Part shown: positions 38,763-54,554 of the stretch, piece after piece | Layout: each line of letters opens with the position of its first letter | Position numbering within the stretch: position 1 is the first letter of the stretch | NCBI RefSeq assembly: GCF_001050195.2 | Contig: NZ_DF967965.1 | Span: 1,100,486-1,155,282 of the forward strand | Length of the DNA: 54,797 nt | Direction of reading: 5' to 3' | Origin: Anaerolinea thermolimosa | GTDB lineage: Bacteria; Chloroflexota; Anaerolineae; Anaerolineales; Anaerolineaceae | Made by a program: the position numbers and the translations under genes | Notes under the pieces: model-generated | What the model was told of the DNA's origin: nothing | The model's database searches: none | The model's input: only the letters and a program-made list of their open reading frames with translations

Positions 38763-39004
38763 GATACCCGGGACAGATTTGTGGAGTGGATAAAATCCTT
38801 TGCCTGTGTGCCACAGGAGAACGGTGGCTGTGCGGGTGCAGGTATGGAACAGGATTGCAATTGAGATGACGAAATGACGGCATAGACACTCACAGCGAGC
38901 AGGGCGAATATGTGTAATCGCGTCTGCCCGCTGCGGGTAGTAAAGAATGGCATGGAAGGAATCAGGTTACAGGTATTTCACGGCTGGCTTTCAGTTCCCA
39001 TTTA
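38763..39004. other. Gene-free gap between the PerR-like operon and the GH151-like gene
   Basis: The gap contains no convincing gene. A 64-codon minus-strand frame (38759-38953) lacks a ribosome binding site and ends inside the TTGACA of the PerR-like promoter. No strong hairpin was found here. Confidence 0.5.
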
Positions 39005-40984
39005 TCAAGCCTGTGGGTAGGTAATGGCAACCATCTGATGACCATACACTTCAGGTACCACGAAGCGGAGGTATCCCTCTGAGAATTCAAAGAATAGGGG
39101 CACGTTTTGTGGAACCAGTGATACTGAACCAGGTTCCCGGGTTGAACGCACCGAAACAGAAAGGTGATGGATGGGAAGAACATCCTCGATGGTATCGAGT
39201 TCCAGGCCGCGCCGTTCGGGAATGTAATGCAAGAGGTGAAGTATTTGTCTGTGATGATGAGGTTGTTCGTTCAGGGTGACACGCAGGGTCGAAGGCCCGG
39301 AGATGCGGACTGCAGGTTGAGGGAGAAGCATCTTCAGGGCATTGAGGAAAAGGGTTTTCACCCAGTGGGGGGCTCGCTGGCGGTATTGAGTGAAAATGGG
39401 GTGAGCGAAATAGATGACATTCCCGTGGCGGAGAACTGCAGGATAAGCTGTTTGATGCGATGAGGGGGTGTGCTGATGGGAACAAAAATGGCGGAAATCC
39501 CGGTTAAAGTAAGGGATGGCAGTCGAAGCAAGCACCTCAGTATCCGGCAGAGGGGAGACCTGCTGCCCGCGTAGATACATGACGTGTTCGACAGGGGGAA
39601 GACCCTGGCCAATTTCTCCGGCGGGAAGGATAAAATCGGGGCTGTAAGGTGCATCGCCTACCCGGTTCACGCCAAAGGCCGGTAAGGCGAAATTCTGTCC
39701 ACCTTCCATGAGGCCAGAACGGTGAGAGGCGATGATCTTCCCTCCGTGCTCAAGATAAGCCTGAACTTTCTGAGCCAGTTGAGCATCGAAGAGCACCTCA
39801 TCAGGAAAAATGAGCACCTGGTAAGCAGAAAAGTCGCTCTGGCTATCGAGCACATCAAACTGATGTGCGCCTTCTTCCAGCATCATTAAGGCACCTGCGG
39901 TACTATCGGAAACCATCGCCCCGGTAACCTCTTCGGTGTTTAAAAGGCCTATCTCTGCCACTGGTCTGGCGCCTTCACACCAGGGCTCTTTTTCTTCAAC
40001 GCTGGCATATACGGAACCGATGAGTCGATAGGTATCCTGACAAATTTTCCCATCCGGGTGAAGTTGATCACCAATGGAGCATTTTGCATTGAGGGCGAGC
40101 ATACGGAAGCACTCGAACTGCAACGCGGCCGGGTTCTTGAAGGAGTGAAAGTCACCCCAGGAGGTATGAAACTTCCCCGTCATTCCCAGGCAATCCAGTC
40201 CAAGGGTACGGGCGTAACGCATGGTAAGGGGAAAGTGAAGATATCCCCACCCGGCACTCGGCAGAGATTCCAATTCTAGGTGCGAGTACGCACCGGTTGT
40301 GTTTCGTACCAGAGAGTTGATGTGGCCGGCGTTGTAGAAAATGGTACAGTCTTTACTGAAGGAACGTACAAACGCCGTCATTTCCTGTTTGAATTGATCA
40401 ATGACCATTCTACCAAAGCGGATTCTGTTGCTCTGGTCAGAGGGATCAAGACCCTGTTCGAGCATCGCTTTTCGGCTCCAGATCGAAGAATCATCCAGCG
40501 GCTGGACGATATCAAAAAACAATCCATCCACCGGGAAGAGCGAAAACAATTCCTCAACATGCTTTTTGAGGAAGTCCAGATAAGGAGAATTTACGAGCAG
40601 ATAGCGGTAGAACCCGGCTTCATAAGGTGGCGTGCCCAGGATTTTTCCATCTGCTCCGATAGCCAACCATTCAGGATGCTCTTCGGCAGTGAAATGATCC
40701 CACTGTACTGTGGTGTAAATTGGAACACGGATGCCTTTTCTGTGGCAGGCTTCGATCTGCTCTGCCAGTAAATTACGCACCAGGTGAGGATGGCGTCTTT
40801 CAGGATTGACCCGAGAATCGTAGTAAAGATACCCATGGTGGCACCGGGCGAAACAGGTCACTGAGTTAACGTGGGCCTGCTTCAAAGTAGTGGCGAATTC
40901 TTCGGGGTCGAAAGCTTGCCCCACCCCGACAATGTGCTGGCTGGTGTGAAAGTCGAGATGAACCTGGCGGTAGCGGAGTTCCAT
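39005..40984 (-). CDS. Putative alpha-L-fucosidase-like glycosidase (GHL6 barrel + beta-galactosidase trimerisation domain, GH151-like)
   Basis: 659 residues. The N-terminal barrel (about 1-360) begins YRQVHLDFHTSQHIVGVG and has CFARCHHGYLYYDS, IYTTVQWD and VDGLFFDIVQ, the pattern of the hypothetical glycosyl hydrolase 6 family. Residues about 370-590 resemble the beta-galactosidase trimerisation domain (YQVLIFPDEVLFDAQLAQKV). This pair is the layout of GH151 alpha-L-fucosidases; the activity is inferred. No signal peptide. GGGAGG precedes the ATG at 40984. It lies downstream of, and in line with, acetyl-CoA synthetase. Confidence 0.7.
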   Translation of the reverse strand: MELRYRQVHLDFHTSQHIVGVGQAFDPEEFATTLKQAHVNSVTCFARCHHGYLYYDSRVNPERRHPHLVRNLLAEQIEACHRKGIRVPIYTTVQWDHFTAEEHPEWLAIGADGKILGTPPYEAGFYRYLLVNSPYLDFLKKHVEELFSLFPVDGLFFDIVQPLDDSSIWSRKAMLEQGLDPSDQSNRIRFGRMVIDQFKQEMTAFVRSFSKDCTIFYNAGHINSLVRNTTGAYSHLELESLPSAGWGYLHFPLTMRYARTLGLDCLGMTGKFHTSWGDFHSFKNPAALQFECFRMLALNAKCSIGDQLHPDGKICQDTYRLIGSVYASVEEKEPWCEGARPVAEIGLLNTEEVTGAMVSDSTAGALMMLEEGAHQFDVLDSQSDFSAYQVLIFPDEVLFDAQLAQKVQAYLEHGGKIIASHRSGLMEGGQNFALPAFGVNRVGDAPYSPDFILPAGEIGQGLPPVEHVMYLRGQQVSPLPDTEVLASTAIPYFNRDFRHFCSHQHTPSSHQTAYPAVLRHGNVIYFAHPIFTQYRQRAPHWVKTLFLNALKMLLPQPAVRISGPSTLRVTLNEQPHHHRQILHLLHYIPERRGLELDTIEDVLPIHHLSVSVRSTREPGSVSLVPQNVPLFFEFSEGYLRFVVPEVYGHQMVAITYPQA

Positions 40985-41108: not shown

Positions 41109-43016
41109 TTACTCTTCCAGGGTGCTCAGGTCACCTTCTGGCAGACCCTGTGCCCGGGCTTTTAATACCCGGCGCATTATTTTCCCGCTGCGAGTCTTGG
41201 GAAGCTGGGAGACAATGGTGATCTTCTCTGGTCTGGCAATGGGTCCCATTTCGTGAGCCACGTGAGCGCGCAGTTCCTCAATCAAGGACTCGGAGGGTTC
41301 GAAACCGGCACGGAGAATAACGTAGGCGTGAATAGCATTCCCCTTAATATCGTGGGGCAGGCCAATAGCAGCCGCTTCGGCGACGGCAGGATGGCTGACA
41401 AGCGCACTTTCGATCTCGGCGGTTCCAAGGCGATAACCTGACACTTTAATCACATCATCGACTCTCCCGATGATCCAGTAATAACCATCTTCGTCTTTTC
41501 GAGCGCTGTCTCCGGTGAAATATACACCTGGAAATTTGCTCCAGTACTGAGACACGTAACGATCGGGATCGTTGTAAATGTTCCGTAACATGGCCGGCCA
41601 CGGGCGCTTCAAAACCAGGTATCCTTCTTCACCAGCGGGAAGAGAATTCCCGTTTTCATCCACAACATCGGCCTCGATGCCGGGGAAGGGTTTGGTAGCG
41701 CTTCCGGGTTTGAGGGGAGTTTCGGGGAGGGGAGTAATCATAAACATCCCCGTTTCTGTTTGCCACCAGGTATCCATTATAGGGCAACGCCCTTTACCAA
41801 TAGCCTCGTAATACCAGCGCCAGGCTTCTGGATTGATTGGCTCACCCACGGTTCCAAGCAAGCGGAGGCTGGAAAGGTCATGGCGATTGGGCCAGGCCTC
41901 GCCGTAACGCATCAGACCGCGAATCGCCGTCGGGGCGGTGTACAAAATATTAATCCCGTACTTCTCAACCATACTCCACCAGCGGTTCGGATAGGGATAG
42001 GTGGGCGCTCCTTCGTACATGAAGCTGGTCGTTCCCAGCAGTAAGGGCCCATAGACGATGTAGCTATGACCGGTAATCCAACCCGGGTCTGCTGTACACC
42101 AGTAGCGGTCTTCTTCTTTCAGATCAAATACCCATTTCAGGGTGGTGGCCACCCCGACCATGTAACCACCATGGGTATGTAAAATGGCCTTGGGGCGTCC
42201 GGTAGTACCTGAGGTATAGAGGAGGAAGAGAGGATCTTCGGCATCCATTTCCTCCGTTTCACAACGAGAATTTCCGCTGGCGGTACGGGCTACCGGGAGG
42301 GTCATCAATTCGTGGTACCAGTAGTCACGCCCCGATTCCATGGTGACGGGCTGGCCAGTTCGCCTGACTACTATTACATGTTCAACAGTGGCACAGCGTT
42401 TCAGGGCTTCGTCCACTATATTTTTTAATTCCACGATTTTCCCGTTCATATAGCCGCCATCGCAAGTGATGACCACCTGCGACTGGCTATCTTCGATCCG
42501 TCCGTGCAGGGCTTCGACAGAAAAGCCCCCGTATACGACCGAATGAACGGCACCAATCTTTGCACAGGCAAGCATGGCCACAGGGAGTTCAGGGATTCGT
42601 CCCATGTAGATCGTTACCCGATCTCCTTTATGTACCCCCATACTGCGCAGTACATTGGCGAACATGCACACTTCGCGGTTGAGTGCATGGTATGAAAAAG
42701 TACGCTGGTCGCCATTTTCACCTTCCCAGATGATTGCCAGTTTATTCCGCCGCCAGGAGCGGACATGACGGTCGAGGCAGTTGTAGACGATATTGGTGGT
42801 GGCCCCTACGAACCATTGATAAAACGGTGGATTGGAGTCATCTAAAACTCTTGTCCATGGGCGGAACCATTCAAATTCTTTCGCCTGTTCTTCCCAGAAG
42901 CCTTCCAGGTTTTGATCAGCCATGCGAGCGAGCACATCACGGTTGTTAATGTGAGCCGACTCTACAAGTCCAGGAGGTGGAGGAAAGAAATCGCGGAGGC
43001 GCTGATCGGTGGCCAT
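41109..43016 (-). CDS. acsA: Acetyl-CoA synthetase (AMP-forming)
   Basis: 635 residues, close to the usual 640-650. Adenylation motifs are YTSGTTGRPKA, DTWWQTETG and YFTGDSARKDEDGYYWIIGR. The C-terminal catalytic lysine lies in KTRSGKIMRR, the usual acetylation target. It converts acetate, ATP and CoA to acetyl-CoA. AAAGGG precedes the ATG. It is transcribed divergently from the megasynthase gene with 382 bases between, and may supply acetyl units to it. Confidence 0.95.
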   Translation of the reverse strand: MATDQRLRDFFPPPPGLVESAHINNRDVLARMADQNLEGFWEEQAKEFEWFRPWTRVLDDSNPPFYQWFVGATTNIVYNCLDRHVRSWRRNKLAIIWEGENGDQRTFSYHALNREVCMFANVLRSMGVHKGDRVTIYMGRIPELPVAMLACAKIGAVHSVVYGGFSVEALHGRIEDSQSQVVITCDGGYMNGKIVELKNIVDEALKRCATVEHVIVVRRTGQPVTMESGRDYWYHELMTLPVARTASGNSRCETEEMDAEDPLFLLYTSGTTGRPKAILHTHGGYMVGVATTLKWVFDLKEEDRYWCTADPGWITGHSYIVYGPLLLGTTSFMYEGAPTYPYPNRWWSMVEKYGINILYTAPTAIRGLMRYGEAWPNRHDLSSLRLLGTVGEPINPEAWRWYYEAIGKGRCPIMDTWWQTETGMFMITPLPETPLKPGSATKPFPGIEADVVDENGNSLPAGEEGYLVLKRPWPAMLRNIYNDPDRYVSQYWSKFPGVYFTGDSARKDEDGYYWIIGRVDDVIKVSGYRLGTAEIESALVSHPAVAEAAAIGLPHDIKGNAIHAYVILRAGFEPSESLIEELRAHVAHEMGPIARPEKITIVSQLPKTRSGKIMRRVLKARAQGLPEGDLSTLEE

Positions 43017-43398
43017 TGTCTTTTTCCCTTTCTTTTCCAGATGAGCCGTTTGTTTCTTTTGGGTAATTACAGATCGCTTATAAAGATATAATATATCAAA
43101 TTTATCAAATTATACCCATGAATTTCTCGGGGGTTTTTCCAAAGAATGCCCGTTAAATTACAGAAATATCGGGCGTAACTTCTGGGTAAAGATAGTGTTT
43201 CACGCTTTAGGAGCAACCCGGTAATATTGGGGACGGGTATTCCTTCGACCTGTGTGGTCATGGCAGGAAAAGAAGGTTCGGCTCTACATCACCTGGTTTA
43301 TTCCATCGATCGGACTGGGTTCACTGTTGGGAATTTACCGATGAGAGGTTTTCCTGGTGGTTGAACGTTGTGGGTCGATGAATTCCTTTGGAGGAGAT
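43017..43398. other. Divergent control region between acsA and the megasynthase
   Basis: 382 bases without a gene. An AT-rich tract at 43078-43118 contains several TATAAT-like words on the minus strand and two TTGATA-like words, suiting an acsA promoter. No clear promoter for the plus strand and no riboswitch fold was recognised. GGAGG at 43390-43394 is the megasynthase ribosome binding site. Confidence 0.5.
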
Positions 43399-46300
43399 AT
43401 GCCAATTACCAAACCGGTAGCCGTGGTCGGAATCGGCGCAGTCATGCCGGATGCGAATGACGCAGCGACCTTCTGGAGCAATATCAAGCAGGGGCGTTAT
43501 TCCATCACCGAGGTGCCTGAAAACCGCTGGTCTGTGGATTTGTACTACGATCCAGACCCCACTGCTCAGGATAAAACATACTGCAAAATCGGCAGCTGGG
43601 TGAGAGACTTTGTTTTTCAACCGTTTCAATGGGGAATTGCCATCCCTCCTCGGGTACTTGAACAGATGGACCAGGCCCAGCAGTGGGCCATTGCTGCCAC
43701 CCGGCAAGCATTGCTGGATTATGGCTATCCACAGCGGGCTGTGAATCAAAGCCGAACGGCAGTGATCATCGGAAATGCACTGGGGGGTGAGAAGCATTAT
43801 GTCACGTCGTTACGCATTCGTGCTCCAGAGTTTCTCCGGGCACTCTCATCTGTTCCGGAATTTCAGACTCTGCCTGAAGCTCTTCAGAAGGCATTGCTGG
43901 AGGGAATGCGAGAGAAGATCCGCAAGTCAACGCCGGAGATTACCGAAGACACGATGCCAGGGGAACTCTCAAATGTGATCGCAGGCCGGGTAGCGAATGT
44001 GTTTAACTTCCAGGGCACGAATTTTGTTACCGATGCGGCATGTGCCTCTTCACTGGCGGCGCTTCAGGCGGCTATTGAAGGATTGAATCACCATCAATTT
44101 GACCTGGTAGTAACAGGTGGCGTCGACAGTATGATGGGGGTGGACGGATTTGTTAAGTTCTGTAAAATTGGGGCACTTAGCCCGGATGGTTCACGCCCTT
44201 ACGCTGATGGTGCTAACGGGTTTGTGATGGGAGAGGGAGCGGCTATCTTCCTGCTGAAACGGCTGGAAGATGCGGAACGCGATGGTGACAAAATTTATGC
44301 TGTGGTGCGGGGCATTGGTTCCAGCAGTGATGGGAAAGGGAAAGGAATCACCGCCCCTAACCCGAACGGGCAGGAAAGAGCCATCGAACGCGCCTGGAAG
44401 AACGCCGGTATTTCTCCAGACACAGTTGGACTGATTGAGGGGCACGGCACCTCGACCAGAGTTGGAGATCTGGTTGAAGTCGAAAGCCTGGTTCGTATTT
44501 TTGGACAATTCGGTTTAAAACCCGGTTCGATTGCCCTGGGATCGGTAAAATCGAACATCGGGCATTTGAAGAGCGCCGCTGGCGCAGCCGGTGTCTTCAA
44601 GGTGGCCATGGCATTGTATGAGAAGGTGCTTCCACCGTCGATCAATTTTGAAAAACCCAACCCCAATATCGACTTTCCTCACATTCCATTTGCGGTCAAC
44701 ACTCAACTCCGTCCCTGGGAGGTGCGGAATGGACAGGTTCGAAGGGCAGGGGTAAGTTCATTTGGATTTGGAGGCACCAATTTTCATGTGGTGATGGAAG
44801 AGTACGTTCCAGGTCTGACTGCTGGCGAAAGCCGTCTGTTTGCAGGGGTGGATGTAAAGGGGAGAGAAGTGGAGGTGCCTACTCCATCTTCCGTTGCCTC
44901 TGCGTACCGCGACAGTTCGGCTATTTCTGTGAAAAACTATTCAGAGCCGCCAGTATCTTCCTCGGAAATTAAACCGTATCGTGGTCTTTTCTTCCTCAGC
45001 GCGGATACCGTACCTCAACTTCGAGAAGTGCTCTCTGAACGGATTGAGCAAATAAAAGCGGGGAATGTTCCATCATCTGCACTTCCTGCTCTGGAAGAGA
45101 TTCAGCGCCCGGAAAGGCTGGCCATTGATTATGGCGATCCTGCAGAATTGCTCAAACGGGCAGAAAGAGCGCTGAAAGGGTTCGAGGCTGATGTAAATCC
45201 CTGGCAGGCTCTGGTGGCCCATGGGATTTTTCGGGGAAGCGGACAGCCGGGTAAAGTGGCTTTCCTTTTCCCGGGTCAGGGATCACAATACGCCAATATG
45301 TTGAAGGATCTCTGTGAGGTAGAGCCGATTGTCGCTGAAACATTCAAGGAAGCAGATCGGGTCATGACCCCGATCCTCGGGCGGCCACTGACTGATTTTA
45401 TTTATGTAAGTGGAGATGAGGCTGCCCTGGCTGAGGCTGAAAAGGCGCTGCGGAATACAGAGATCACCCAGCCGGCCATGCTTACAGCCAATGTTGCTCT
45501 ATTGCGACTGCTGAAGCACTTTGGTTTTTCGCCAGATATGGTGATCGGCCATAGCCTGGGCGAATATGCGGCCCTGGTAGCCGCTGAAGTGTTGACCTTT
45601 GCTGAGGCACTGGAGGTGGTCTCGGCGCGGGGCCGCGAAATGACGAAGGTGACCTGGGAAGACAACGGGTGTATGGCGGCAGTGTCTGCACCGATTGAGA
45701 AAGTGGAAGCTCTGCTGCAAACCGTGGATGGGTATGTGGTGATTGCAAACATCAACAGCCCCACGCAATGCGTTATTGGTGGAACCACAGCGGCTGTGGA
45801 TGCGGCTCTGGATGCATTTATGAAAGCCGGTTTTCAGGGTACAAAGATTCCTGTTTCTCATGCGTTCCACACCCGGATTGTCGAACCGGCCAGCGAACCT
45901 TTGCGCCAGGTGATTTCCCGGATGAATATCCAGTCGCCCCGAACCACAGTCATCGCGAATGTTACGGGTGAGGTCTACCCCACCAGCCGGGATGAAATCC
46001 TGGACCTGCTGGCAAAACAGGTAGCTTCGCCGGTGCAGTTTATTAAAGGCATGGAGACGCTTTACCGGCTGGGAGCCCGGGTATATGTGGAAGTAGGGCC
46101 AAAGCGGGTGTTAAATGCGCTGGTTTCCGATATCCTTAAGGGCCGCACTGATGTGGCGATCCTGGCAACGAACCACCCTCGTGAAGGGGCTGTGGTGAGT
46201 TTTAATAAAGCCCTTTGTGGTTTGCTTGCGGCGGGAATTTGCCCGCAAACGAAGGAAAAACCTCTGACGATCGAGCTTTCAGAGGGGCGGCAACCGGTTT

Positions 46301-49300
46301 CGGGAGTCAATCGGGATGAGATCCGGCAATTTGTTTTGAGGATGGTCAGTGAGAAGACTGGCTATCCCGAAGATATGCTTGACCTGGAGCTGGATCTTGA
46401 AGCCGACCTGGGGATTGATACGGTCAAACAGGCTGAGCTACTGGCTGAGATCCGTTCTCATTTTGGGATTCCGCGACGCGAGGATTTGCGCCTGAGCGAT
46501 TACAACACCCTGGCCAAGGTGATCGCGTTTATTGATGAGGCATTGAAAAGCCAGCCCGCAGAAGAACACGTGGAACTCACCATGCTCAAAGGTGAGCAAA
46601 CAGAAGCTGTTATGCCTGTTTCTGGAGATACCCCGGTCGAGACGGAGGAAGTGAGTCAGCAACGAACTGTTCGTTATTCGGTCTCGGATGGCCGGTTGCC
46701 TCTCACTGGTTCGGTGGTGATTTCGGGGGCCGGCCTTGGTTTGCCGGGGAGAGAAAAGCCGGTTTTTACGGATGATAATATTCACCACATTCTGCGTGGA
46801 GAAATCCGCATTGAGCCATTACCGGAAAATCAACGCAGGCACATGCTTGAGAAGCGTGTTGTCAGGCTGATTAAAAGCGAGGCCGGGGCAGTGATGCAGA
46901 TGATCGATTCACTCGATCAGACCATAAAACTGGCCGGCCAACGTGGAAAGTTTGACCCGGTCGATGATTTCGGTATCCCGGCAGACCGGGTGGAAGCCAC
47001 CGATATTTCGACCCGGCTGGCCATAGCCGCCGGGATTGAAGCCCTTCGGGATGCAGGTATTCCTCTGGTGATGCGGTATCGCATGACAAGTAAGGGGACG
47101 TATCTACCTGATCGCTGGAAGCTGCCTGAGGCTCTGGCTGATGAAACGGGGGTCATTTTTGCCTCGGCCTTTCCTGGCCTGGATGAGATGGCCAGAGAGG
47201 CTGGAAGATATTACACCTTCCGTCATTTAGAGGATCAAATAACGGAGCTGGAAGGCATTCTCAAGCTGGTGCCGATGGAGCAAACCGGGCTTCGGGCAAC
47301 CCTTGAGGAACGTATTCGCACGCTTAAAGCACAAAAGGATGCCCTGGATTATCATTTCGACCGGCGCTTCATCTTTCGGGTGTTAAGCATGGGGCATTCT
47401 CAATTCGCGGAATATATCGGGGCACGTGGGCCAAATACCCACGTTAATGCCGCCTGTGCCACAACGACCCATGCTATTGCACTGGCTGAAGACTGGATCC
47501 GAACCGGTAGAGCGCGGCGGGTGATTGTGATTGCGGGAGATGATGTGACTTCTGGCCCCCTCGCTGGCTGGGTAGGCACAGGTCTGATGGCTTCAGGTGC
47601 GGCGACCACCGAGGGTGACCCTCGAAAGGCGATCTTGCCTTTTGACCGGCGGCGAAACGGGATGGTGATGGGAATGGGGGCCGCCGCGGTGGTGGTGGAA
47701 TCGGAAGATGCTGTGCGGGAGCGCGGTATGCGGGGCATCTGTGAGGTGCTTGCCACTCAGATCGCTAACAGTGCGTTCCATGGTACACGGCTGGACGTTC
47801 AGCATGTCAGTGAAATTATGGAGCGCTTGATGACTCAGGCTGAACAGCGATTCGGCTTGCGGCGACATGAGATTGCACCCAGGACGGTATTTGTCTCTCA
47901 TGAGACCTATACCCCGGCCAGAGGAGGCTCCGCTGCGGCTGAGATTCATGCCTTGCGCCATGTCTTTGGGGAACAGGCCAACCAGGTGGTGATCGCCAAC
48001 ACCAAAGGATTTACAGGGCACACGATGGGCGTGGGTATCGAAGATGTGGTGGCCATTAAAGCGATTGAAACAGGGTTGGTTCCCCCGATTGCTAATATTC
48101 AAGATGGATTCGAGCCCGACCCCGAGCTGGGTGACTTGCGTTTGTCCAGAGGGGGGCATTATGATGTAGAGTTTGCACTTCGCCTGGGTGCGGGTTTTGG
48201 CTCGCAGATCGCGATGACTTTGCTGCGAAAGATACCCGGGGTGGGTGAACGGATTCAACGCCCTATTTATCAAAAGTGGCTGGCTGAAGTAGCCGGTTAT
48301 GAAACTGCTGAGCTGGAAGTGGAAAAGAGGACTCTGCGTGTCAGGCATGATGGTCCGCCTGTCAGACCTCCGGCGCGTTCGAACTGGCAATTCGGGCAGG
48401 GTCCGACACTGTGGGCCATCGAACATGTTGATCGGGTTTCTTTTACTCAGGTCGTTTCGGGTCAGAAAACTGACAAACCTTCACCATCTATCGAGGTGAT
48501 CGGGGAGGTTTCTCAGCCACAGAAACCGATGACGCCGTTACCGGAAGTGTCGGTTCAGACCTCTGATGAGGAGATTCGGGCGTTTGTACTGCGGGTGGTG
48601 AGCGAGAAGACTGGCTACCCGGTGGAAATGCTCGACCCGGAGCTGGATCTGGAAGCCGACCTGGGCATCGATACCGTTAAACAGGCAGAACTGTTTGCCG
48701 CCATTCGAACTCATTTCAACCTTCCACGTCGTGAAGATTTACGTCTGGCTGATTACAACACACTGGAAAAAGTGATTCGATTCATGAAAGAGTCTCTCGC
48801 CGGGCAGAGATCAGCTTTGCATGCTCAGGAGGTTGAGCGTAAGCCTGAAACTCCAACGGGCGGCGTTATGGTTGTTGAGCATGCTGTTCAGGCTGGGCCT
48901 CATTCTGAGGAAATCAGGGATTTTGTTCTCAAGACCGTGAGTGAAAAGACGGGATATCCCATTGAAATGCTGGATGTAGACCTTGACCTTGAGGCTGATC
49001 TGGGAATCGATACGGTGAAACAGGCCGAGTTGTTTGCCGCAGTTCGGACGCATTACAATCTTCCGCGGCGAGAAGACCTCAGGCTTGCGGACTACAACAC
49101 TTTAGCGAAAGTGATCCAGTATATGCAGGAGGCTCTGGGGCAAACCCCGAAAGGCCGCGATATAACTACGCCAGAGAAAGAGAAATTAGAGGGGGGCTCA
49201 AGCGAGTCTTCTGAAGAAGTTTTTCCTGAAACTACTTCGCCTGTGGATGATGAAGCAATCAAGGCTTTTGTTTTGAAAGCCGTCAGCGAAAAGACCGGTT

Positions 49301-52137
49301 ACCCGGTGGAAATGCTCGATCTTGAGCTGGACCTGGAAGCCGATCTGGGTATTGACACGGTGAAGCAAGCGGAGTTATTTGCCGCTGTGCGTGAACATTA
49401 TCAACTTCCACGCCGTGAGGACTTACGTCTTGCCGATTACAATACGCTTTCTAAAGTAATCCAGTTTATGCGAGACTCGCTGATGGCACAGAGGGCACTG
49501 GCTGGCGAAACTCAAGCGGCCTCTTCACAGGTTGGAGAGGTTGAAGCAACCCCAGAAACTTCCGCTAATCCGCTCGATTATTTGTTAAAGCAATCTGTGG
49601 AGCAGGTCATACCGCGCCGGGTTGTGGTTCCGGTGTTGCGCCCCAGATTGGATTTATGTGTTTCCACGGGCGTTGTTCTGGATGGTTCCAGCCGGATTGT
49701 GGTGGTTGCTGACCAGGGAAAAGCTGCTGAGGCTCTGGTCAGACGGTTGCGAAGCCGTAAGGTGCAGGTGCTCATGATCCCGGGAGACTGCCTTTCTGAT
49801 TCTCTTACGGATGTGGAAGCATTTGCCTCTGCTGGCGGGGTTTCCGGGGTGTACTTCCTCCCGGCGCTGGATATTGAGCCCCCACTTGCAGAAATGAATG
49901 AAGAGATCTGGCAGGCAGAGCTGGGTCGCCGCGTCCTGAGTCTGTATGCTCTATTACGGACTATTCCCGGTGAGCCGTTCCTGATGAGCGCTACGCGGAT
50001 GGGTGGCCTTTATGGCTATTCGCCCGAAGGTTCAATTGCTCCTCTGGGTGGGGGGGTAAGCGGTTTTACCAAGGCGTTAGCCCGGGAACGGCCCCATGCT
50101 CTGGTCAAGGTGGTGGATTTCGAAAAGGAGGCAAAGCCGGGAGAGATTGCTTCTCGCTTACTCTCCGAGACTTTAAACGACCCGGCCGTTGTAGAGATAG
50201 GTTGGAAGGAGAACCAGCGCTACGGATTTACCCTGATAGAACACCCTCTGGACGAATCCGAGCTGGCTTTGAGCGGAGATGAAGTGTATGTGGTGAGCGG
50301 TGGATCGGGCGGCATAGTTGCCCCGGTGGTGCTGGATCTGGCAAGAAATGCGGGGGGAAGGTTCTACCTGCTCAGCCGAACTCCGTTGCCTGAACCCGAC
50401 GATACTGAGGTGAGAGCGCTAAGGGCTGATCGGGAGGCCTTCAAGTTAAAAAAGATGCAGGAGCTGAAAGCGCGGGGTGAAAAAGCCACCCCTGCGGTGG
50501 TGGATCAAAAACTGGCGGTACTGGATCGCGCCCTTGCCACCCTGGATATGATCGCCGCAGCAGAGAAGTCCGGAGCGACCATGAGGTATTTGCCCTGTGA
50601 TGTGACGGATCCTGTGTCGTGCGAGCGCGCTGTGCAGACCATTGTTGCTGAAGCGGGTAAGGTGGATGTTTTTATTCACGCTGCAGGTGTAGAAAGAAGC
50701 CGAAAACTGGAATCCAAACCGCTGGAAGAATTCCTACAAACTCTGGCGGTAAAGGCTTCTGGATTTTTCCACCTTTTCAAAGCGATGGAGAAGCATGGAT
50801 GCGTCCCTGAAAAAATGGTGTTCTTCTCCTCAGTGGCTGGCCGGTTTGGAAATACCGGGCAGACGGATTACAGCGCTGCCAATGATTTACTTGCCAAGCT
50901 GGGGGCATCTATTCGGGCCACTTACCCCCACATGCAGGTGGTGACGATCGACTGGGGCGCCTGGGCTGAGGTTGGAATGGCCAGCCGCGGTTATGTGCCA
51001 GAGTTGATGAAACGTGCCGGGATTGAAATGATGCACCCGGCCGTGGCTGCACCTCTGGTACGTCAGGAGATTAATCACCATACTCCCGGCGGTGAGGTGA
51101 TCTATGCTGGTTCCCTGGGGGTGCTGGAAGAAGCGCTAAAGGCAGACGGCGGTTTGGACCTGGAAAAGGCAAACCAGGCTCTGACTCGGGGCCAACCGAA
51201 GCATCTCATGCTGACTCGGGTTACGGGTATGAACCTTGAAGAAGGTGTTATCCTGGAAGCGGAACTGGACCCGAACGCCGAGCCTTTCTTGCGAGACCAT
51301 GCATTGAACGGGATTCCATTGCTTCCGGGGGTGATGGGTATCGAAGGGTTATCTGCAGCGGCACAACACATCGCTTCGGTGCTGGCCTCAGAAAAGGGCA
51401 GTTACCAGGTGACGAGGCTGGAAAATATCCAGTTTCGGGCTCCGTTTAAGTTTTATCGCAATCAACCGCGTAAGGTTACCTGGAAGGCACGCGTGCTTCG
51501 CGAAGGCGATTCCCTGGTGGGTTATGCCAGCCTGGAATCTACCCTTGCGCGTTATGGGCGTGACCCGGAGCGAATGTTGCACTTTACAGGAAAGGTGTAC
51601 TTACAGCCAACCACTGAACCGCTTGAGGCAGCAAAGAGCCAGGCACCGGCATGGAATGGATCGAGGATTCTCCCGGCTGATGAAATATACCGTCTGTATT
51701 TCCATGGGCCAGCCTTCCGGGTTTTGGAAGCAGTGCAGCAGAAGCCAGGAATAGTCTTGGGTAAACTAAGCCAGAAATTACCCCCTCTCACCCGGGAAGA
51801 ACAGTCTTTCATTCTCTCTCCCTTGCTGGTGGAACTTTGCCTGCAAACGGCAGGGGTCTGGGAGATTGGGGCGAAGGGAATCATGGCGCTACCTCGTTCA
51901 ATAGGCAGGTTGATGATATATCCCGGGGAGGTGAATGGGGATGAAATTTATGCAGAGGTGATACCCCATAGTGAAGGCGGAGAACGTCCCCGTTTCGATG
52001 CCCGGGTAGTGGATGCCAAAGGGCGAGTCTTGCTGGAATTAGAAGATTATCGAACTGAGCCACTGCCCTACACCGTGGAGAAAGAACAGCTCATGCCCCT
52101 GCAAATCTGGTTGAACAACGATCCCAGAGAAGGATGA
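43399..52137 (+). CDS. PUFA-synthase-like megasynthase KS-AT-ACP-KS-ACP-ACP-ACP-KR-DH
   Basis: Single chain of 2912 residues. KS1 (1-455): C215, H349, H389. AT (619-915): GHSLGEY with S719, and HAFH with H824, the malonyl-specific pattern. ACP1 (972-1048). KS2 (1106-1640): C1353 in NAACATTTH, H1501 in SHETYTP, H1541 in GFTGHTMG. ACP2-4 (1723-2027). KR: structural half about 2060-2285, GGSGG 2301-2305, S2478, Y2491. DH double hot-dog (2600-2895): H2634xxxGxxxxPG and E2812xxxQ where Asp is usual. The ACP style (TGYPxEMLDxxxDLEADLGID) is that of polyunsaturated fatty acid synthases. All four ACPs have Thr in place of the pantetheine Ser. ATG 43399 has GGAGG at 43390. The product is unknown, probably a long-chain lipid or polyketide made iteratively. 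Confidence 0.88.
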   Translation: MPITKPVAVVGIGAVMPDANDAATFWSNIKQGRYSITEVPENRWSVDLYYDPDPTAQDKTYCKIGSWVRDFVFQPFQWGIAIPPRVLEQMDQAQQWAIAATRQALLDYGYPQRAVNQSRTAVIIGNALGGEKHYVTSLRIRAPEFLRALSSVPEFQTLPEALQKALLEGMREKIRKSTPEITEDTMPGELSNVIAGRVANVFNFQGTNFVTDAACASSLAALQAAIEGLNHHQFDLVVTGGVDSMMGVDGFVKFCKIGALSPDGSRPYADGANGFVMGEGAAIFLLKRLEDAERDGDKIYAVVRGIGSSSDGKGKGITAPNPNGQERAIERAWKNAGISPDTVGLIEGHGTSTRVGDLVEVESLVRIFGQFGLKPGSIALGSVKSNIGHLKSAAGAAGVFKVAMALYEKVLPPSINFEKPNPNIDFPHIPFAVNTQLRPWEVRNGQVRRAGVSSFGFGGTNFHVVMEEYVPGLTAGESRLFAGVDVKGREVEVPTPSSVASAYRDSSAISVKNYSEPPVSSSEIKPYRGLFFLSADTVPQLREVLSERIEQIKAGNVPSSALPALEEIQRPERLAIDYGDPAELLKRAERALKGFEADVNPWQALVAHGIFRGSGQPGKVAFLFPGQGSQYANMLKDLCEVEPIVAETFKEADRVMTPILGRPLTDFIYVSGDEAALAEAEKALRNTEITQPAMLTANVALLRLLKHFGFSPDMVIGHSLGEYAALVAAEVLTFAEALEVVSARGREMTKVTWEDNGCMAAVSAPIEKVEALLQTVDGYVVIANINSPTQCVIGGTTAAVDAALDAFMKAGFQGTKIPVSHAFHTRIVEPASEPLRQVISRMNIQSPRTTVIANVTGEVYPTSRDEILDLLAKQVASPVQFIKGMETLYRLGARVYVEVGPKRVLNALVSDILKGRTDVAILATNHPREGAVVSFNKALCGLLAAGICPQTKEKPLTIELSEGRQPVSGVNRDEIRQFVLRMVSEKTGYPEDMLDLELDLEADLGIDTVKQAELLAEIRSHFGIPRREDLRLSDYNTLAKVIAFIDEALKSQPAEEHVELTMLKGEQTEAVMPVSGDTPVETEEVSQQRTVRYSVSDGRLPLTGSVVISGAGLGLPGREKPVFTDDNIHHILRGEIRIEPLPENQRRHMLEKRVVRLIKSEAGAVMQMIDSLDQTIKLAGQRGKFDPVDDFGIPADRVEATDISTRLAIAAGIEALRDAGIPLVMRYRMTSKGTYLPDRWKLPEALADETGVIFASAFPGLDEMAREAGRYYTFRHLEDQITELEGILKLVPMEQTGLRATLEERIRTLKAQKDALDYHFDRRFIFRVLSMGHSQFAEYIGARGPNTHVNAACATTTHAIALAEDWIRTGRARRVIVIAGDDVTSGPLAGWVGTGLMASGAATTEGDPRKAILPFDRRRNGMVMGMGAAAVVVESEDAVRERGMRGICEVLATQIANSAFHGTRLDVQHVSEIMERLMTQAEQRFGLRRHEIAPRTVFVSHETYTPARGGSAAAEIHALRHVFGEQANQVVIANTKGFTGHTMGVGIEDVVAIKAIETGLVPPIANIQDGFEPDPELGDLRLSRGGHYDVEFALRLGAGFGSQIAMTLLRKIPGVGERIQRPIYQKWLAEVAGYETAELEVEKRTLRVRHDGPPVRPPARSNWQFGQGPTLWAIEHVDRVSFTQVVSGQKTDKPSPSIEVIGEVSQPQKPMTPLPEVSVQTSDEEIRAFVLRVVSEKTGYPVEMLDPELDLEADLGIDTVKQAELFAAIRTHFNLPRREDLRLADYNTLEKVIRFMKESLAGQRSALHAQEVERKPETPTGGVMVVEHAVQAGPHSEEIRDFVLKTVSEKTGYPIEMLDVDLDLEADLGIDTVKQAELFAAVRTHYNLPRREDLRLADYNTLAKVIQYMQEALGQTPKGRDITTPEKEKLEGGSSESSEEVFPETTSPVDDEAIKAFVLKAVSEKTGYPVEMLDLELDLEADLGIDTVKQAELFAAVREHYQLPRREDLRLADYNTLSKVIQFMRDSLMAQRALAGETQAASSQVGEVEATPETSANPLDYLLKQSVEQVIPRRVVVPVLRPRLDLCVSTGVVLDGSSRIVVVADQGKAAEALVRRLRSRKVQVLMIPGDCLSDSLTDVEAFASAGGVSGVYFLPALDIEPPLAEMNEEIWQAELGRRVLSLYALLRTIPGEPFLMSATRMGGLYGYSPEGSIAPLGGGVSGFTKALARERPHALVKVVDFEKEAKPGEIASRLLSETLNDPAVVEIGWKENQRYGFTLIEHPLDESELALSGDEVYVVSGGSGGIVAPVVLDLARNAGGRFYLLSRTPLPEPDDTEVRALRADREAFKLKKMQELKARGEKATPAVVDQKLAVLDRALATLDMIAAAEKSGATMRYLPCDVTDPVSCERAVQTIVAEAGKVDVFIHAAGVERSRKLESKPLEEFLQTLAVKASGFFHLFKAMEKHGCVPEKMVFFSSVAGRFGNTGQTDYSAANDLLAKLGASIRATYPHMQVVTIDWGAWAEVGMASRGYVPELMKRAGIEMMHPAVAAPLVRQEINHHTPGGEVIYAGSLGVLEEALKADGGLDLEKANQALTRGQPKHLMLTRVTGMNLEEGVILEAELDPNAEPFLRDHALNGIPLLPGVMGIEGLSAAAQHIASVLASEKGSYQVTRLENIQFRAPFKFYRNQPRKVTWKARVLREGDSLVGYASLESTLARYGRDPERMLHFTGKVYLQPTTEPLEAAKSQAPAWNGSRILPADEIYRLYFHGPAFRVLEAVQQKPGIVLGKLSQKLPPLTREEQSFILSPLLVELCLQTAGVWEIGAKGIMALPRSIGRLMIYPGEVNGDEIYAEVIPHSEGGERPRFDARVVDAKGRVLLELEDYRTEPLPYTVEKEQLMPLQIWLNNDPREG
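46312..46542 (+). other. ACP1 domain of the megasynthase, separate from the tandem set
   Basis: Residues 972-1048, between AT and KS2. The attachment position is T1008 (codon ACG at 46420) in LGIDTVKQAEL. It differs from ACP2-4 mainly in LLAEIRSHFGI. Confidence 0.8.
48565..49479 (+). repeat. Three tandem ACP domains (ACP2-4) of the megasynthase
   Basis: Units at 48565-48795, 48904-49134 and 49249-49479, with periods of 113 and 115 codons. Each has LGIDTVKQAELFAA, with threonine at residues 1759, 1872 and 1987 (codons ACC, ACG, ACG). The proteins are nearly the same while synonymous codons differ, so the duplication is old and held by selection. Linkers are unlike. Confidence 0.85.
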
Positions 52138-52880
52138 CCTCGACCCTTTACTGGAATCTTGAAAGTGGTGGGCCGGCAATGGCGGATTGGCAGGCGGGTA
52201 CGGGTTTAAATTTCCTGTCTCCTGCAGAACACAACCGCCTTGCCGGCTTTCGGTTCGAACGGCGCAGATTGGAATGGCTTCTTGGCCGAAGAACCGCTAA
52301 ACGTTTGCTTTATGAATGTTGTACTGATCTGGTAGGGGTTCCACCTGAAAAAATCACCATCGCTAACAGGGCCGGGGGTGCACCTTATGTGATTCTGGAT
52401 GGAGAGTACGAACTTAAAGGTTGCCTATCAATCAGTCACCGCGATGATCTGGCCGCCTGTGCCTGGGTTGAAGGGCCTGTAACCGGGCTGGGGATTGATA
52501 TTGAGCGCATTGAAAAGCGAGACACCAGTTTTCTAGAAGATTTTTTTACTGAGCAGGAACGGATGTTTGCACAGGCTCTCCCTGAGCCAGAGCAGACACT
52601 CTGGGTAACGCTTGGCTGGAGTGTGAAAGAGTCGGCCTTGAAAGTTCGAGGAGTGGGGTTGCGTGCAGACACGAGAGAGGTAGAATTGCGGAAGGTAAGC
52701 GGGTTGTTTCGAGCCCGGGAAGCCGAACACCAGTGGAAACCGGTGGGGATTCAAACCGGAGCCTATTCTGATGGGATATGGCAGGCCTGGTGGCGAAAGC
52801 ACGGGGAATATCTCCTCACCCTGGTGGTCCATAGCCAGGGTGAGGAGGAGTGGATGCTGAAAGAAGTTGCTCAGCGTTGA
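52134..52880 (+). CDS. Sfp-type 4'-phosphopantetheinyl transferase
   Basis: 248 residues. The family blocks are GIDIERIEKR (Mg2+/CoA site, about 122-131) and WSVKESALKVRG (about 163-174), with FLSPAEHNRL near the N-terminus and LSISHRDDLAACAW. It transfers the phosphopantetheine arm from CoA to carrier proteins. Its ATG overlaps the stop of the megasynthase (ATGA), so it is made together with the protein it should activate. The four ACPs with threonine at the acceptor site are its obvious, and unusual, partners. Confidence 0.92.
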   Translation: MTSTLYWNLESGGPAMADWQAGTGLNFLSPAEHNRLAGFRFERRRLEWLLGRRTAKRLLYECCTDLVGVPPEKITIANRAGGAPYVILDGEYELKGCLSISHRDDLAACAWVEGPVTGLGIDIERIEKRDTSFLEDFFTEQERMFAQALPEPEQTLWVTLGWSVKESALKVRGVGLRADTREVELRKVSGLFRAREAEHQWKPVGIQTGAYSDGIWQAWWRKHGEYLLTLVVHSQGEEEWMLKEVAQR

Positions 52881-52892
52881 AAAAATTTTTGG

Positions 52893-54554
52893 CTAAATGA
52901 GCGGATGTTCAGGAGTGTAGCGGTTGAGATCGGCTGGCAGGAAAATTCCCTGCAACCTGGCCGCCTGTAAACGGCTTAGATAGGCTGCCCCTGTGAAAAG
53001 GTGGAGAGTGACATCCACGACGTGGCGATTGGCGGGTTGCTCCAGATAAGTTCCCCGAACCCATTCGTTAAAGACGCCCATGGATGGCCCACACCAGATC
53101 TGGTAATCCATTTCACGGCCTTCCTCGCCGGTATTGGACCAGCGGGAGGAAAGGCCGAGGTACCAGCGAAATACCAGGGCCATTTTATGATGAGGATCCT
53201 TTTCTGCACGTACCAGTTGAGCGGGATCCCGATCTGTAAAAAACTTTACTGTATCTGACCAGATCTCATCAAAGGTTCGTTTAAAAATGGTCTTCTCGAG
53301 GCGATCGCGCTCGGCTTGAGGCACCTCTTCCCAGGTGGTGTAGCGAGAGTATATTTCGTATAGCTTTGAAGCGCGGGGGGCAAACATTGTGCCACGTTTA
53401 AGAACCTGAACTTTTACTCCCATCTCGAACATATCGGCTGCCGGTGCCATGGCGACATCAGCCATTTCGGCCTGGGCTAACAGGTTGCGGGTTTGCTCCG
53501 AAGTACCTGCCTCAACACAGGCCTGGTTGATCGAGCCGGTTGTGACGTATGCTGCACCTAATGTGAAGGCTGCGAGGACGGCCTGTGGAGTGGCGATGCC
53601 GCCGGCTGCGCCTATGCGTACAACCTGAGAGTAAGAATAACGGGATTGCATCTGGTCTCGCAGGGTGAGAATGGCAGGGATAAGCCCCACCAGGGGGCGA
53701 TTATCGGTATGCCCCCCTGAGTCGGCTTCTACGGTGATGTCATCAGCCATAGGGATTGAGCGCGCGAGCTCAGCCTGCCGTTGTGTAATTTTTCCTTCTT
53801 CCAGAAGGCGATGGACCAAATCATCAGGGGCCGGGGAAAGGAACCGGCTGGCGACTTCTTTACGAGAGATCTTCGCAATGATGTGATGATTGACCTGAAT
53901 TTTTCCCTCTGGTGTAAGTTCCAGACCACTTAATCGATAATAGGCGAGGGCATAGGTGATATCGAGGTAGGCTGAAGCCTCGACGACCGGAATGTTCTTC
54001 TGCACGTACAGTTCGGCTGCGCGCTGTTCAAGGCGGGGTTCGTTGGGGCTATTCAAGAGATTAAAGGCATAAGGCCCGTTCGGCAGGGCGTCTTGAATTT
54101 TGGCTATGGCGGCTTCTATGCGGGAAGGGCTGCATCCGCCTGCCCCAAATGATCCCATCAATCCTGCTTTACCGAGGCTGATCACCAGGTCTTCTGATGC
54201 AATAGCACCAGCCATGGCTCCGGCATAAAAAGAAGCCCGGGTATGATAGGTACGGCGAAAAGACGGATCTCCGAGGCTTTCCCAGGGAACTGCAGGGATT
54301 ATGCCGAGAATGGGGAGGTTTTCAGATTGTACGGAAGAGGCGGAAAGAACTTCCCCTTCGGATACCAGGCCGATCTTCTTTTCAGAGAGAACAACCCAGA
54401 GGGGTTGATCGATCTGTAGAAGAGAAGAGCGCATCTGAACAGGTGTAAAGGCGATGGTTTGAGAATCTCCATGCCATTTTAATGCCGACCAGGGGCGGAG
54501 AGCTGAAGACAAGAGAGAGTCAGTTTCATTGGTAATGGAGCGAGCAGGAATCAT
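52893..54554 (-). CDS. PfaD-type trans-acting enoyl reductase
   Basis: 553 residues of the PfaD family (nitronate-monooxygenase-like FMN barrel). Recognisable are LGKAGLMGSFGAGGCSPSRIE, the DITVEADSGGHTDNRP loop, IGAAGGIATPQAVLAAFTLGAAYV and VLKRGTMFAPRASKLYEIY. PfaD enzymes reduce enoyl intermediates on polyunsaturated fatty acid and some polyketide synthases, and the megasynthase lacks an enoyl reductase of its own. It faces the phosphopantetheinyl transferase gene with only 12 bases between the stop codons, so it needs a separate promoter near 54570-54650; none is obvious. Confidence 0.93.
   Translation of the reverse strand: MIPARSITNETDSLLSSALRPWSALKWHGDSQTIAFTPVQMRSSLLQIDQPLWVVLSEKKIGLVSEGEVLSASSVQSENLPILGIIPAVPWESLGDPSFRRTYHTRASFYAGAMAGAIASEDLVISLGKAGLMGSFGAGGCSPSRIEAAIAKIQDALPNGPYAFNLLNSPNEPRLEQRAAELYVQKNIPVVEASAYLDITYALAYYRLSGLELTPEGKIQVNHHIIAKISRKEVASRFLSPAPDDLVHRLLEEGKITQRQAELARSIPMADDITVEADSGGHTDNRPLVGLIPAILTLRDQMQSRYSYSQVVRIGAAGGIATPQAVLAAFTLGAAYVTTGSINQACVEAGTSEQTRNLLAQAEMADVAMAPAADMFEMGVKVQVLKRGTMFAPRASKLYEIYSRYTTWEEVPQAERDRLEKTIFKRTFDEIWSDTVKFFTDRDPAQLVRAEKDPHHKMALVFRWYLGLSSRWSNTGEEGREMDYQIWCGPSMGVFNEWVRGTYLEQPANRHVVDVTLHLFTGAAYLSRLQAARLQGIFLPADLNRYTPEHPLI

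What the first reader, a model, noticed from the sequence alone, without database searches (positions are those of the whole stretch)
46312..49479. All four carrier domains have threonine instead of the phosphopantetheine serine
Seen: LGIDTVKQAE at residues 1008, 1759, 1872 and 1987, where PUFA-synthase carriers have LGIDS(I/V)K. The change is the same in all four, with different codons (ACG, ACC, ACG, ACG), so it is not a sequencing error or a recent copy. The adjoining PPTase argues the domains are still modified. Inference: either the PPTase accepts Thr, or the ACPs work without an arm, for example as docking or scaffold domains.
Basis: partly seen in the sequence, partly recalled or inferred. 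Interest (0 to 1): 0.85.

Follow-up and report, generated by a model that had tools for sequence, protein, structure and literature searches.

The report
Threonine-bearing carrier domains in lipid synthases
A family of fatty-acid-like megasynthases found in both bacteria and archaea carries threonine where carrier proteins normally need serine to hold their swinging cofactor arm, and it usually travels with its own arm-attaching enzyme, so the arm is probably put on threonine.

Summary
All four carrier domains of the 2926-residue synthase read LGIDTVKQAE (Thr codons ACG, ACC, ACG, ACG). I surveyed relatives mainly with the second ketosynthase (KS2), which does not contain the site, and masked the site when finding carriers. 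Of 315 carriers in KS2-bearing synthases from Chloroflexota, archaea, an actinomycete and a third bacterial phylum, 310 have Thr and 5 Ser. All 60 carriers of 22 related synthases without KS2 have Ser. Catalytic sites are intact. A phosphopantetheinyl transferase (PPTase) is fused or linked in 76 of 82 loci with room to see it. In 145 archaeal genomes, PPTase was matched in 37 of 42 with the synthase and 2 of 103 without. Most likely the cognate PPTase puts the arm on Thr. That reaction is inferred; nothing here shows the +340 Da adduct. The synthase resembles 'Type R' secondary lipid synthases (PMC3098273). My searches of an open-licence library turned up no report of natural Thr carriers.

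The parts
43357..52137 (+). Synthase gene, 2926 aa, order KS1-AT-ACP-KS2-ACP-ACP-ACP-KR-DH
   Evidence: Open frame; Pfam domains; TIGR02813 PfaA 1069.4 bits, cut-off 1010.1
43411..44802 (+). KS1 ketosynthase, Cys/His/Lys/His intact
45250..46164 (+). AT acyltransferase, GHSLG Ser and His intact
46309..46551 (+). ACP1; Thr codon ACG at 46420-46422
46708..48210 (+). KS2, second ketosynthase, Cys/His/Lys/His intact; used as the survey query (46690-48363)
48562..48804 (+). ACP2; Thr codon ACC at 48673-48675
48901..49143 (+). ACP3; Thr codon ACG at 49012-49014
49246..49488 (+). ACP4; Thr codon ACG at 49357-49359
50272..51093 (+). KR ketoreductase, Tyr and Asn intact
51199..52035 (+). DH dehydratase (hotdog), His intact
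52134..52880 (+). Phosphopantetheinyl transferase, Sfp type; its ATG overlaps the synthase stop codon
   Evidence: PF01648 58.5 bits, cut-off 25; model pLDDT 94.1; fold matches to Sfp and AASDHPPT
52893..54554 (-). PfaD-family enoyl reductase, convergent with the operon; probable partner
   Evidence: TIGR02814 653.3 bits, cut-off 449.25; a PfaD relative lies in 25 of 32 Anaerolineaceae-set loci

Best explanation
The four domains are working acyl carriers whose 4'-phosphopantetheine arm is attached to threonine instead of serine. The dedicated PPTase (52134-52880) transfers the arm from CoA to the Thr hydroxyl. The loaded carriers then pass acyl groups among KS1, AT, KS2, KR and DH, probably with the PfaD-type enoyl reductase, to make an unknown long-chain lipid. 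Thr is a maintained state of one branch of PfaA-like synthases found in Bacteria and Archaea. Shown here: the Thr, its conservation, the intact catalytic sites, and a linked PPTase with its conserved residues. Inferred: the transfer to Thr, the course of the reaction and the product.
For: Site holds Thr in 310 and Ser in 5 of 315 carriers of KS2-bearing synthases, against Ser in 60 of 60 carriers of 22 related synthases without KS2. Thr-to-Ser swaps in matching domains, e.g. first ACP of L282 against L284 and L285. No further Ser-type carrier motif in 108 long frames, and no other Ser conserved in the carriers (best column 140 of 272). Active sites kept: KS1 Cys/His/Lys/His 82 of 82, AT Ser 83 of 84 (one gap), KS2 Cys/His/Lys/His 47 of 47, KR Tyr and Asn 75 of 75, DH His 56 of 56. 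PPTase fused in 21 and linked in 55 of 82 loci; nine residues invariant in 41 of 41 PPTases aligned. In 145 archaeal genomes PPTase is matched in 37 of 42 with the synthase and 2 of 103 without (Fisher p 1.3e-26, relatedness not corrected); 35 of those 37 have a single PPTase match.
Against: No direct evidence of modification. A background passage of PMC9310384 reports that Ser-to-Thr in spinach ACP-I cost function (primary paper not seen). I saw no clear Thr adaptation in the PPTase alignment. Six of 82 loci show no linked PPTase, among them L157, which has a Ser carrier. Five archaeal synthase genomes have no PF01648 match, although two of these (L170, L162) show a PPTase or part of one with my own profile.
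Confidence: 0.85

Rival explanations
1. The carriers have no arm and act as docking or scaffold domains, or the synthase is dead.
For: Thr is not the known acceptor; a Ser-to-Thr change in spinach ACP-I is reported to cost function (PMC9310384 passage).
Against: Only Thr or Ser at the site in 315 of 315 carriers; catalytic residues intact; linked or fused PPTase in 76 of 82 loci.
Confidence: 0.05
2. The PPTase serves other Ser carriers, or a hidden Ser carrier in the synthase, and the Thr domains are bystanders.
For: G384 has one PPTase match and also a Ser carrier on another contig; L154 and L282 mix one Ser carrier with Thr carriers.
Against: A scan of 108 long frames found Ser motifs only at the 5 counted sites. 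Of 34 single-PPTase archaeal genomes with the synthase and any PF00550 match, 33 have those matches only in the synthase or frames that look like pieces of it. The PPTase is fused to all-Thr synthases, e.g. L135, L136, L138-L141.
Confidence: 0.05
3. Thr carries something else, such as a direct acyl ester or a phosphate, rather than phosphopantetheine.
For: None found here.
Against: The partner enzyme has the Sfp/AASDHPPT fold and conserved PPTase residues.
Confidence: 0.03
4. Thr is modified, but the residue has no special role: an old substitution that the PPTase tolerates as well as Ser. This concerns why, and is compatible with the best explanation.
For: Ser and Thr interchange in a few lineages; most archaeal synthase genomes have no second PPTase that would need to be excluded, 35 of 37 having one match.
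Against: Ser is one base away at every Thr codon, yet seen in 5 of 315 carriers; Thr-type and Ser-type synthases stay distinct inside one genome (G537: L274 and L269; G538: L284 and L270).
Confidence: 0.45

Closest known systems
Type R secondary lipid synthases (Shulse and Allen 2011, PMC3098273; sections 7 and 8 read)
   Same: One pfaA-like gene with KS, AT, a second KS-like domain, several ACPs and KR, followed by a PPTase; reported in Chloroflexi among others; product unknown.
   Different: The window has one ACP before KS2, a C-terminal DH and a PfaD nearby. Its KS2 keeps Cys, His, Lys and His, while the paper calls the domain a chain length factor. The paper's main text does not contain the word threonine.
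PfaA of PUFA synthases (TIGR02813)
   Same: TIGR02813 above its cut-off; tandem ACPs; PfaD neighbour.
   Different: Carriers are LGIDTVKQAE, not LG[IV]DSIKRVE; a KS2 lies in the same chain; KS1 falls on the other side of a branch with SH-aLRT 100.
Sfp-type PPTases (Sfp 4mrt, human AASDHPPT 2cg5)
   Same: Fold: VIA-align Z 21.9, rmsd 2.7 over 216 residues to 4mrt; Z 21.1, rmsd 3.4 over 232 to 2cg5.
   Different: About 19% identity; its linked carriers offer Thr instead of Ser.

Membership tests
Type R secondary lipid synthase (PMC3098273) | KS-MAT-CLF-ACP(3-6)-KR in one pfaA homologue | tested here: inconclusive
   Domains present, but the order has an extra ACP before KS2 and a DH after KR, and KS2 keeps its Cys, unlike what the name chain length factor suggests
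Type R secondary lipid synthase (PMC3098273) | PPTase gene directly downstream | tested here: met
   52134-52880 overlaps the synthase stop codon
Type R secondary lipid synthase (PMC3098273) | PPTase motifs x(G/D)xP and hShxH | tested here: met
   GGAP and LSISH read by eye in the translation against the motifs given in section 8
Type R secondary lipid synthase (PMC3098273) | Place in the published KS tree | not tested
   Published Type R sequences were not fetched by name; L337's contig length of 5,801,598 fits Roseiflexus sp. RS-1, recalled
PfaA of PUFA synthases | TIGR02813 above its curated cut-off | tested here: met
   1069.4 against 1010.1 bits
PfaA of PUFA synthases | Ser carriers of the LGIDS(I/V)K kind | tested here: not met
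   Thr in all four
PfaA of PUFA synthases | Makes PUFAs | not testable with these tools
   No product data
PF00550 carrier domains | Model above cut-off | tested here: met
   86 against 20.8 bits, 2 stretches passing 0.001 alone
PF00550 carrier domains | Arm on the acceptor residue | not testable with these tools
   Needs mass spectrometry
Sfp-type PPTase | Fold and conserved residues | tested here: met

The most novel reading that the evidence does not exclude
Phosphopantetheinyl-threonine is a second, natural carrier code shared by Bacteria and Archaea. Housekeeping AcpS cannot read it, so the synthase is switched on only by its own fused or operon-linked PPTase, which insulates it from fatty-acid and Ser-type PUFA carriers in the same cell.
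Probability: 0.4. Interest if true: 0.9.

Novelty: new variant of a known kind. Interest (0 to 1): 0.8.

Why it matters
The phosphopantetheine serine is treated as the fixed residue of carrier domains. A family with Thr in 310 of 315 sampled carriers, in two domains of life, makes that rule testable and points to PPTases with a different natural acceptor. Such a pair could serve as an orthogonal labelling or carrier-engineering system. It also marks an uncharacterised lipid pathway in 42 of 145 sampled genomes of an archaeal phylum.

Tried and rejected
Local accident or sequencing error: rejected; relatives in the same genus, family and class and in other phyla have Thr. Recent copying of one domain: rejected; Thr codons and flanking codons differ. 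An exact Thr DNA pattern as a census: too narrow. It matched 6 of 301 Chloroflexota genomes; of these G009 is an Lgt gene, G212 shows no carrier motif in frames of 150 aa or more, and it missed the LGVDTVKQ genomes among the 16 of 301 that the KS2 profile found. AlphaFold of a natural ACP-KR-DH-PPTase stretch (L314 with 4 relatives), to see docking in cis: pLDDT 54.3, uninformative. A Thr-specific pocket in the PPTase alignment: nothing clear by eye. The carrier in the plasmid collection: one record at E 1e-5, Nonomuraea.

Results against or outside the counts. In one search, with looser statistics, 234 carrier hits gave Thr 224, Ser 4, gap 5 and Glu 1; the Glu is a weak hit in L160 (VLGMPEQDITSV) that one search did not recover. 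In one search the KR Ser column that I named varied (S 32, T 25, G 18 of 75; I took the first of two adjacent Ser, and the second was not counted), DH Gly was kept in 52 of 56 and DH Pro in 55 of 56. The KS2 count there is 47 because only relatives aligned over more than 60% of the domain were used. In 'linked' means a PPTase frame on the same strand starting within 3 kb; for L061 that frame is long and the PPTase domain itself lies about 5.5 kb downstream.

Rows dropped or assigned. In one search loci brought in by the KS2 search were called KS2-bearing; three frames (L023, one of two in L056, L173) have no KS2 hit in the same frame. The 39 loci were picked by me from the matches, for long frames at high and low scores. 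L170's PPTase was not among the 41 aligned.

Literature. Searches: carriers, Ser/Thr, PUFA synthases; archaeal synthases; listings were capped at 20. Passages only were seen of PMC9310384, PMC10607373, PMC11744666, PMC8003026, PMC8683515, PMC13291983, PMC10308959 and PMC3585217; of PMC3098273 the outline, passages and sections 7 and 8. Nothing seen described a natural Thr phosphopantetheine site. The library holds open-licence papers only. The Azotobacter (Type P) and other published Type M-T proteins were not fetched, so their residue is unknown to me.

Full report
What is there. The window holds one long gene (43357-52137, +, GTG start, 2926 aa). Pfam and NCBIfam give ketosynthase, acyltransferase, phosphopantetheine-binding, ketoreductase and polyketide-type dehydratase domains, and TIGR02813 (PfaA of PUFA synthases) at 1069.4 bits against a cut-off of 1010.1. 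The order is KS1-AT-ACP-KS2-ACP-ACP-ACP-KR-DH. Its stop codon overlaps the ATG of a PPTase (52134-52880). A PfaD-family enoyl reductase lies convergent (52893-54554), and an acetate-CoA ligase lies upstream on the other strand (41109-43016). The host is close to Anaerolinea: the same-genus genome G216 has a contig of the same length (436,206) as one of Anaerolinea thermophila TT109; that is an inference.

The observation. All four carriers read LGIDTVKQAEL, with Thr codons ACG, ACC, ACG and ACG starting at 46420, 48673, 49012 and 49357. The genome's stand-alone ACP has the usual Ser. The genome has three PPTase matches: two AcpS-sized ones on contig C4 and the synthase-linked one.

The survey. 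To avoid selecting for Thr I searched mainly with KS2, which does not contain the site. In genome contigs, KS2 found 35 loci: 31 Chloroflexota, one marine proteobacterium and three marine Euryarchaeota. The motifs read there, with a pattern that allowed Ser, Thr, Ala, Cys, Gly or Pro, were LG[IV]DTVKQ in 106 of 107; the other is an unrelated frame. In whole genomes KS2 occurs in 42 of 145 sampled from the archaeal phylum of G301 and in 16 of 301 Chloroflexota. A record of the actinomycete Nonomuraea gerenzanensis also has it, at 58.6% identity. In the phylum of the marine proteobacterium I searched with TIGR02813 instead (106 of 235 genomes) and read 39 loci.

The count. Carriers were found with a profile whose site was masked and then counted. 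KS2-bearing synthases: 267 Thr and 5 Ser of 272 carriers in 91 frames, and 43 Thr of 43 in 13 further Chloroflexota loci, 10 of which show carriers; together 310 Thr and 5 Ser of 315. Synthases without KS2, from the same third phylum: 60 Ser of 60 in 22 frames, 16 of them PfaA-like and 6 of another kind. So the method sees both residues, and the residue follows the synthase type: genome G537 has a Ser-type PfaA (L269) and a Thr-type synthase (L274), and G538 likewise (L270, L284). On a KS1 tree of 103 rows the KS2-bearing group is one side of a branch (SH-aLRT 100), and the Ser/Thr label needs two changes with the two mixed rows left out. The two kinds also differ beside the site: LGIDTVKQAE against LGIDSIKRVE.

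Why the arm is probably on Thr. First, the site holds only hydroxyl residues, through all four Thr codons, although Ala, Pro and Ser are each one base away. Second, the five Ser cases look like swaps within the family: the first ACP of L282 is Ser where L284 and L285 have Thr in very similar domains; L154 has one Ser and three Thr; L170 has Ser in both carriers; L157 has one Ser carrier in a short frame. Third, a loose scan for Ser-carrier motifs in 108 long frames found only those five, and no other Ser is conserved in the carriers. Fourth, the machine is intact: KS1 Cys, His, Lys, His in 82 of 82; AT Ser in 83 of 84 (one gap); KS2 Cys, His, Lys, His in 47 of 47; KR Tyr and Asn in 75 of 75; DH His in 56 of 56.

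The partner PPTase. Among 82 KS2 loci with at least 900 bases downstream or a fusion, the PPTase is fused to the synthase C-terminus in 21 (14 in the third phylum, 7 archaeal) and linked on the same strand in 55, L061 only loosely. The six without are L343, L286, L294, L137, L157 and L173; G349 (L137) has PPTases on other contigs, and L173 has a partial PPTase at its contig end. R44, H102, G120, D122, E124, E142, E166, K170 and G175 are invariant in the 41 PPTases aligned. The AlphaFold model (pLDDT 94.1) matches Sfp and AASDHPPT best.

The archaeal comparison. PPTase (PF01648) is matched in 37 of 42 genomes with the synthase and in 2 of 103 without (Fisher p 1.3e-26, relatedness not corrected). 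Of the five without a match, two (G346, L170; G425, L162) show a PPTase or part of one with my own profile. Of the 37, 35 have one match and two (G336, G349) have two. Of those 35, 34 have PF00550 matches, and in 33 of 34 these lie only in the synthase or in long frames that look like pieces of it; the exception is G384, with a Ser carrier on another contig. Of 13 PF00550 matches outside synthases in this sample I read seven, and all seven have Ser. G349, which has two such carriers, also has an AcpS-sized PPTase on the same contig as one of them. G336, whose synthase (L154) mixes Ser and Thr, has a second, AcpS-sized PPTase as well.

What speaks against it. No experiment is shown. PMC9310384 (background passage) says that Ser-to-Thr in spinach ACP-I cost function. 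The PPTase shows no obvious adaptation. L170, with Ser carriers, has a divergent PPTase that PF01648 missed and whose WxxKE motif has Ile for Lys; this hints at coupling but is one case. A cis model of ACP with PPTase was uninformative. MAG incompleteness limits every absence in the archaeal comparison.

Place among known systems. Shulse and Allen (PMC3098273, sections 7 and 8) describe Type R as KS-MAT-CLF-ACP(3-6)-KR with a downstream PPTase in Acidobacteria, Elusimicrobia and Chloroflexi, product uncharacterised. The window resembles it in parts and in PPTase motifs, with an added ACP, DH and PfaD, and a KS2 that keeps its catalytic residues. I file the synthase as Type R-like, membership not settled, and the carrier site as a new variant. 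It is not a Ser-type PfaA.

Meaning. The bold reading is a second carrier code, read only by the cognate PPTase. The cautious reading is an old, tolerated substitution. The bench tests listed would separate them.

Noticed in passing
window 46708-48210 (KS2): The domain that PMC3098273 calls a chain length factor in Type R keeps Cys, His, Lys and His in 47 of 47 relatives aligned, so it may be an active ketosynthase.
   Followed up: partly
L030, L034-L036, L040, L045-L055: In many Anaerolineaceae relatives the first carriers lie near residue 550, apparently between KS1 and AT, while in the window the first lies after AT; carriers recognised per synthase frame range from 1 to 6.
   Followed up: no
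G301 phylum sample: A PfaA-like megasynthase is present in 42 of 145 genomes of an archaeal phylum; its lipid product in archaea is an open question.
   Followed up: partly
L170:14515-15168 (G346): The archaeal synthase with Ser in both carriers has a divergent PPTase (WMAIEAISK) that PF01648 did not match.
   Followed up: partly
G000:C4:12474-12803 and 38812-39141: The window's genome has two AcpS matches with the same score, in frames of 132 aa on opposite strands of one 51,614-base contig; a real or assembly inverted duplication.
   Followed up: no
window 1-41000: The rest of the window is rich in glycoside hydrolases: GH5, two GH3, GH38, an apiosidase-like protein and GHL6.
   Followed up: no
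window 52893-54554: A PfaD relative lies in 25 of 32 Anaerolineaceae-set loci but was not found within the fetched stretches of the archaeal, other Chloroflexota or third-phylum loci at E 1e-30.
   Followed up: no
L061 (NZ_LT559118.1): A Nonomuraea record labelled as a plasmid is 11.85 Mb long with 10 listed features, so its Thr-type synthase is unannotated in that table.
   Followed up: no
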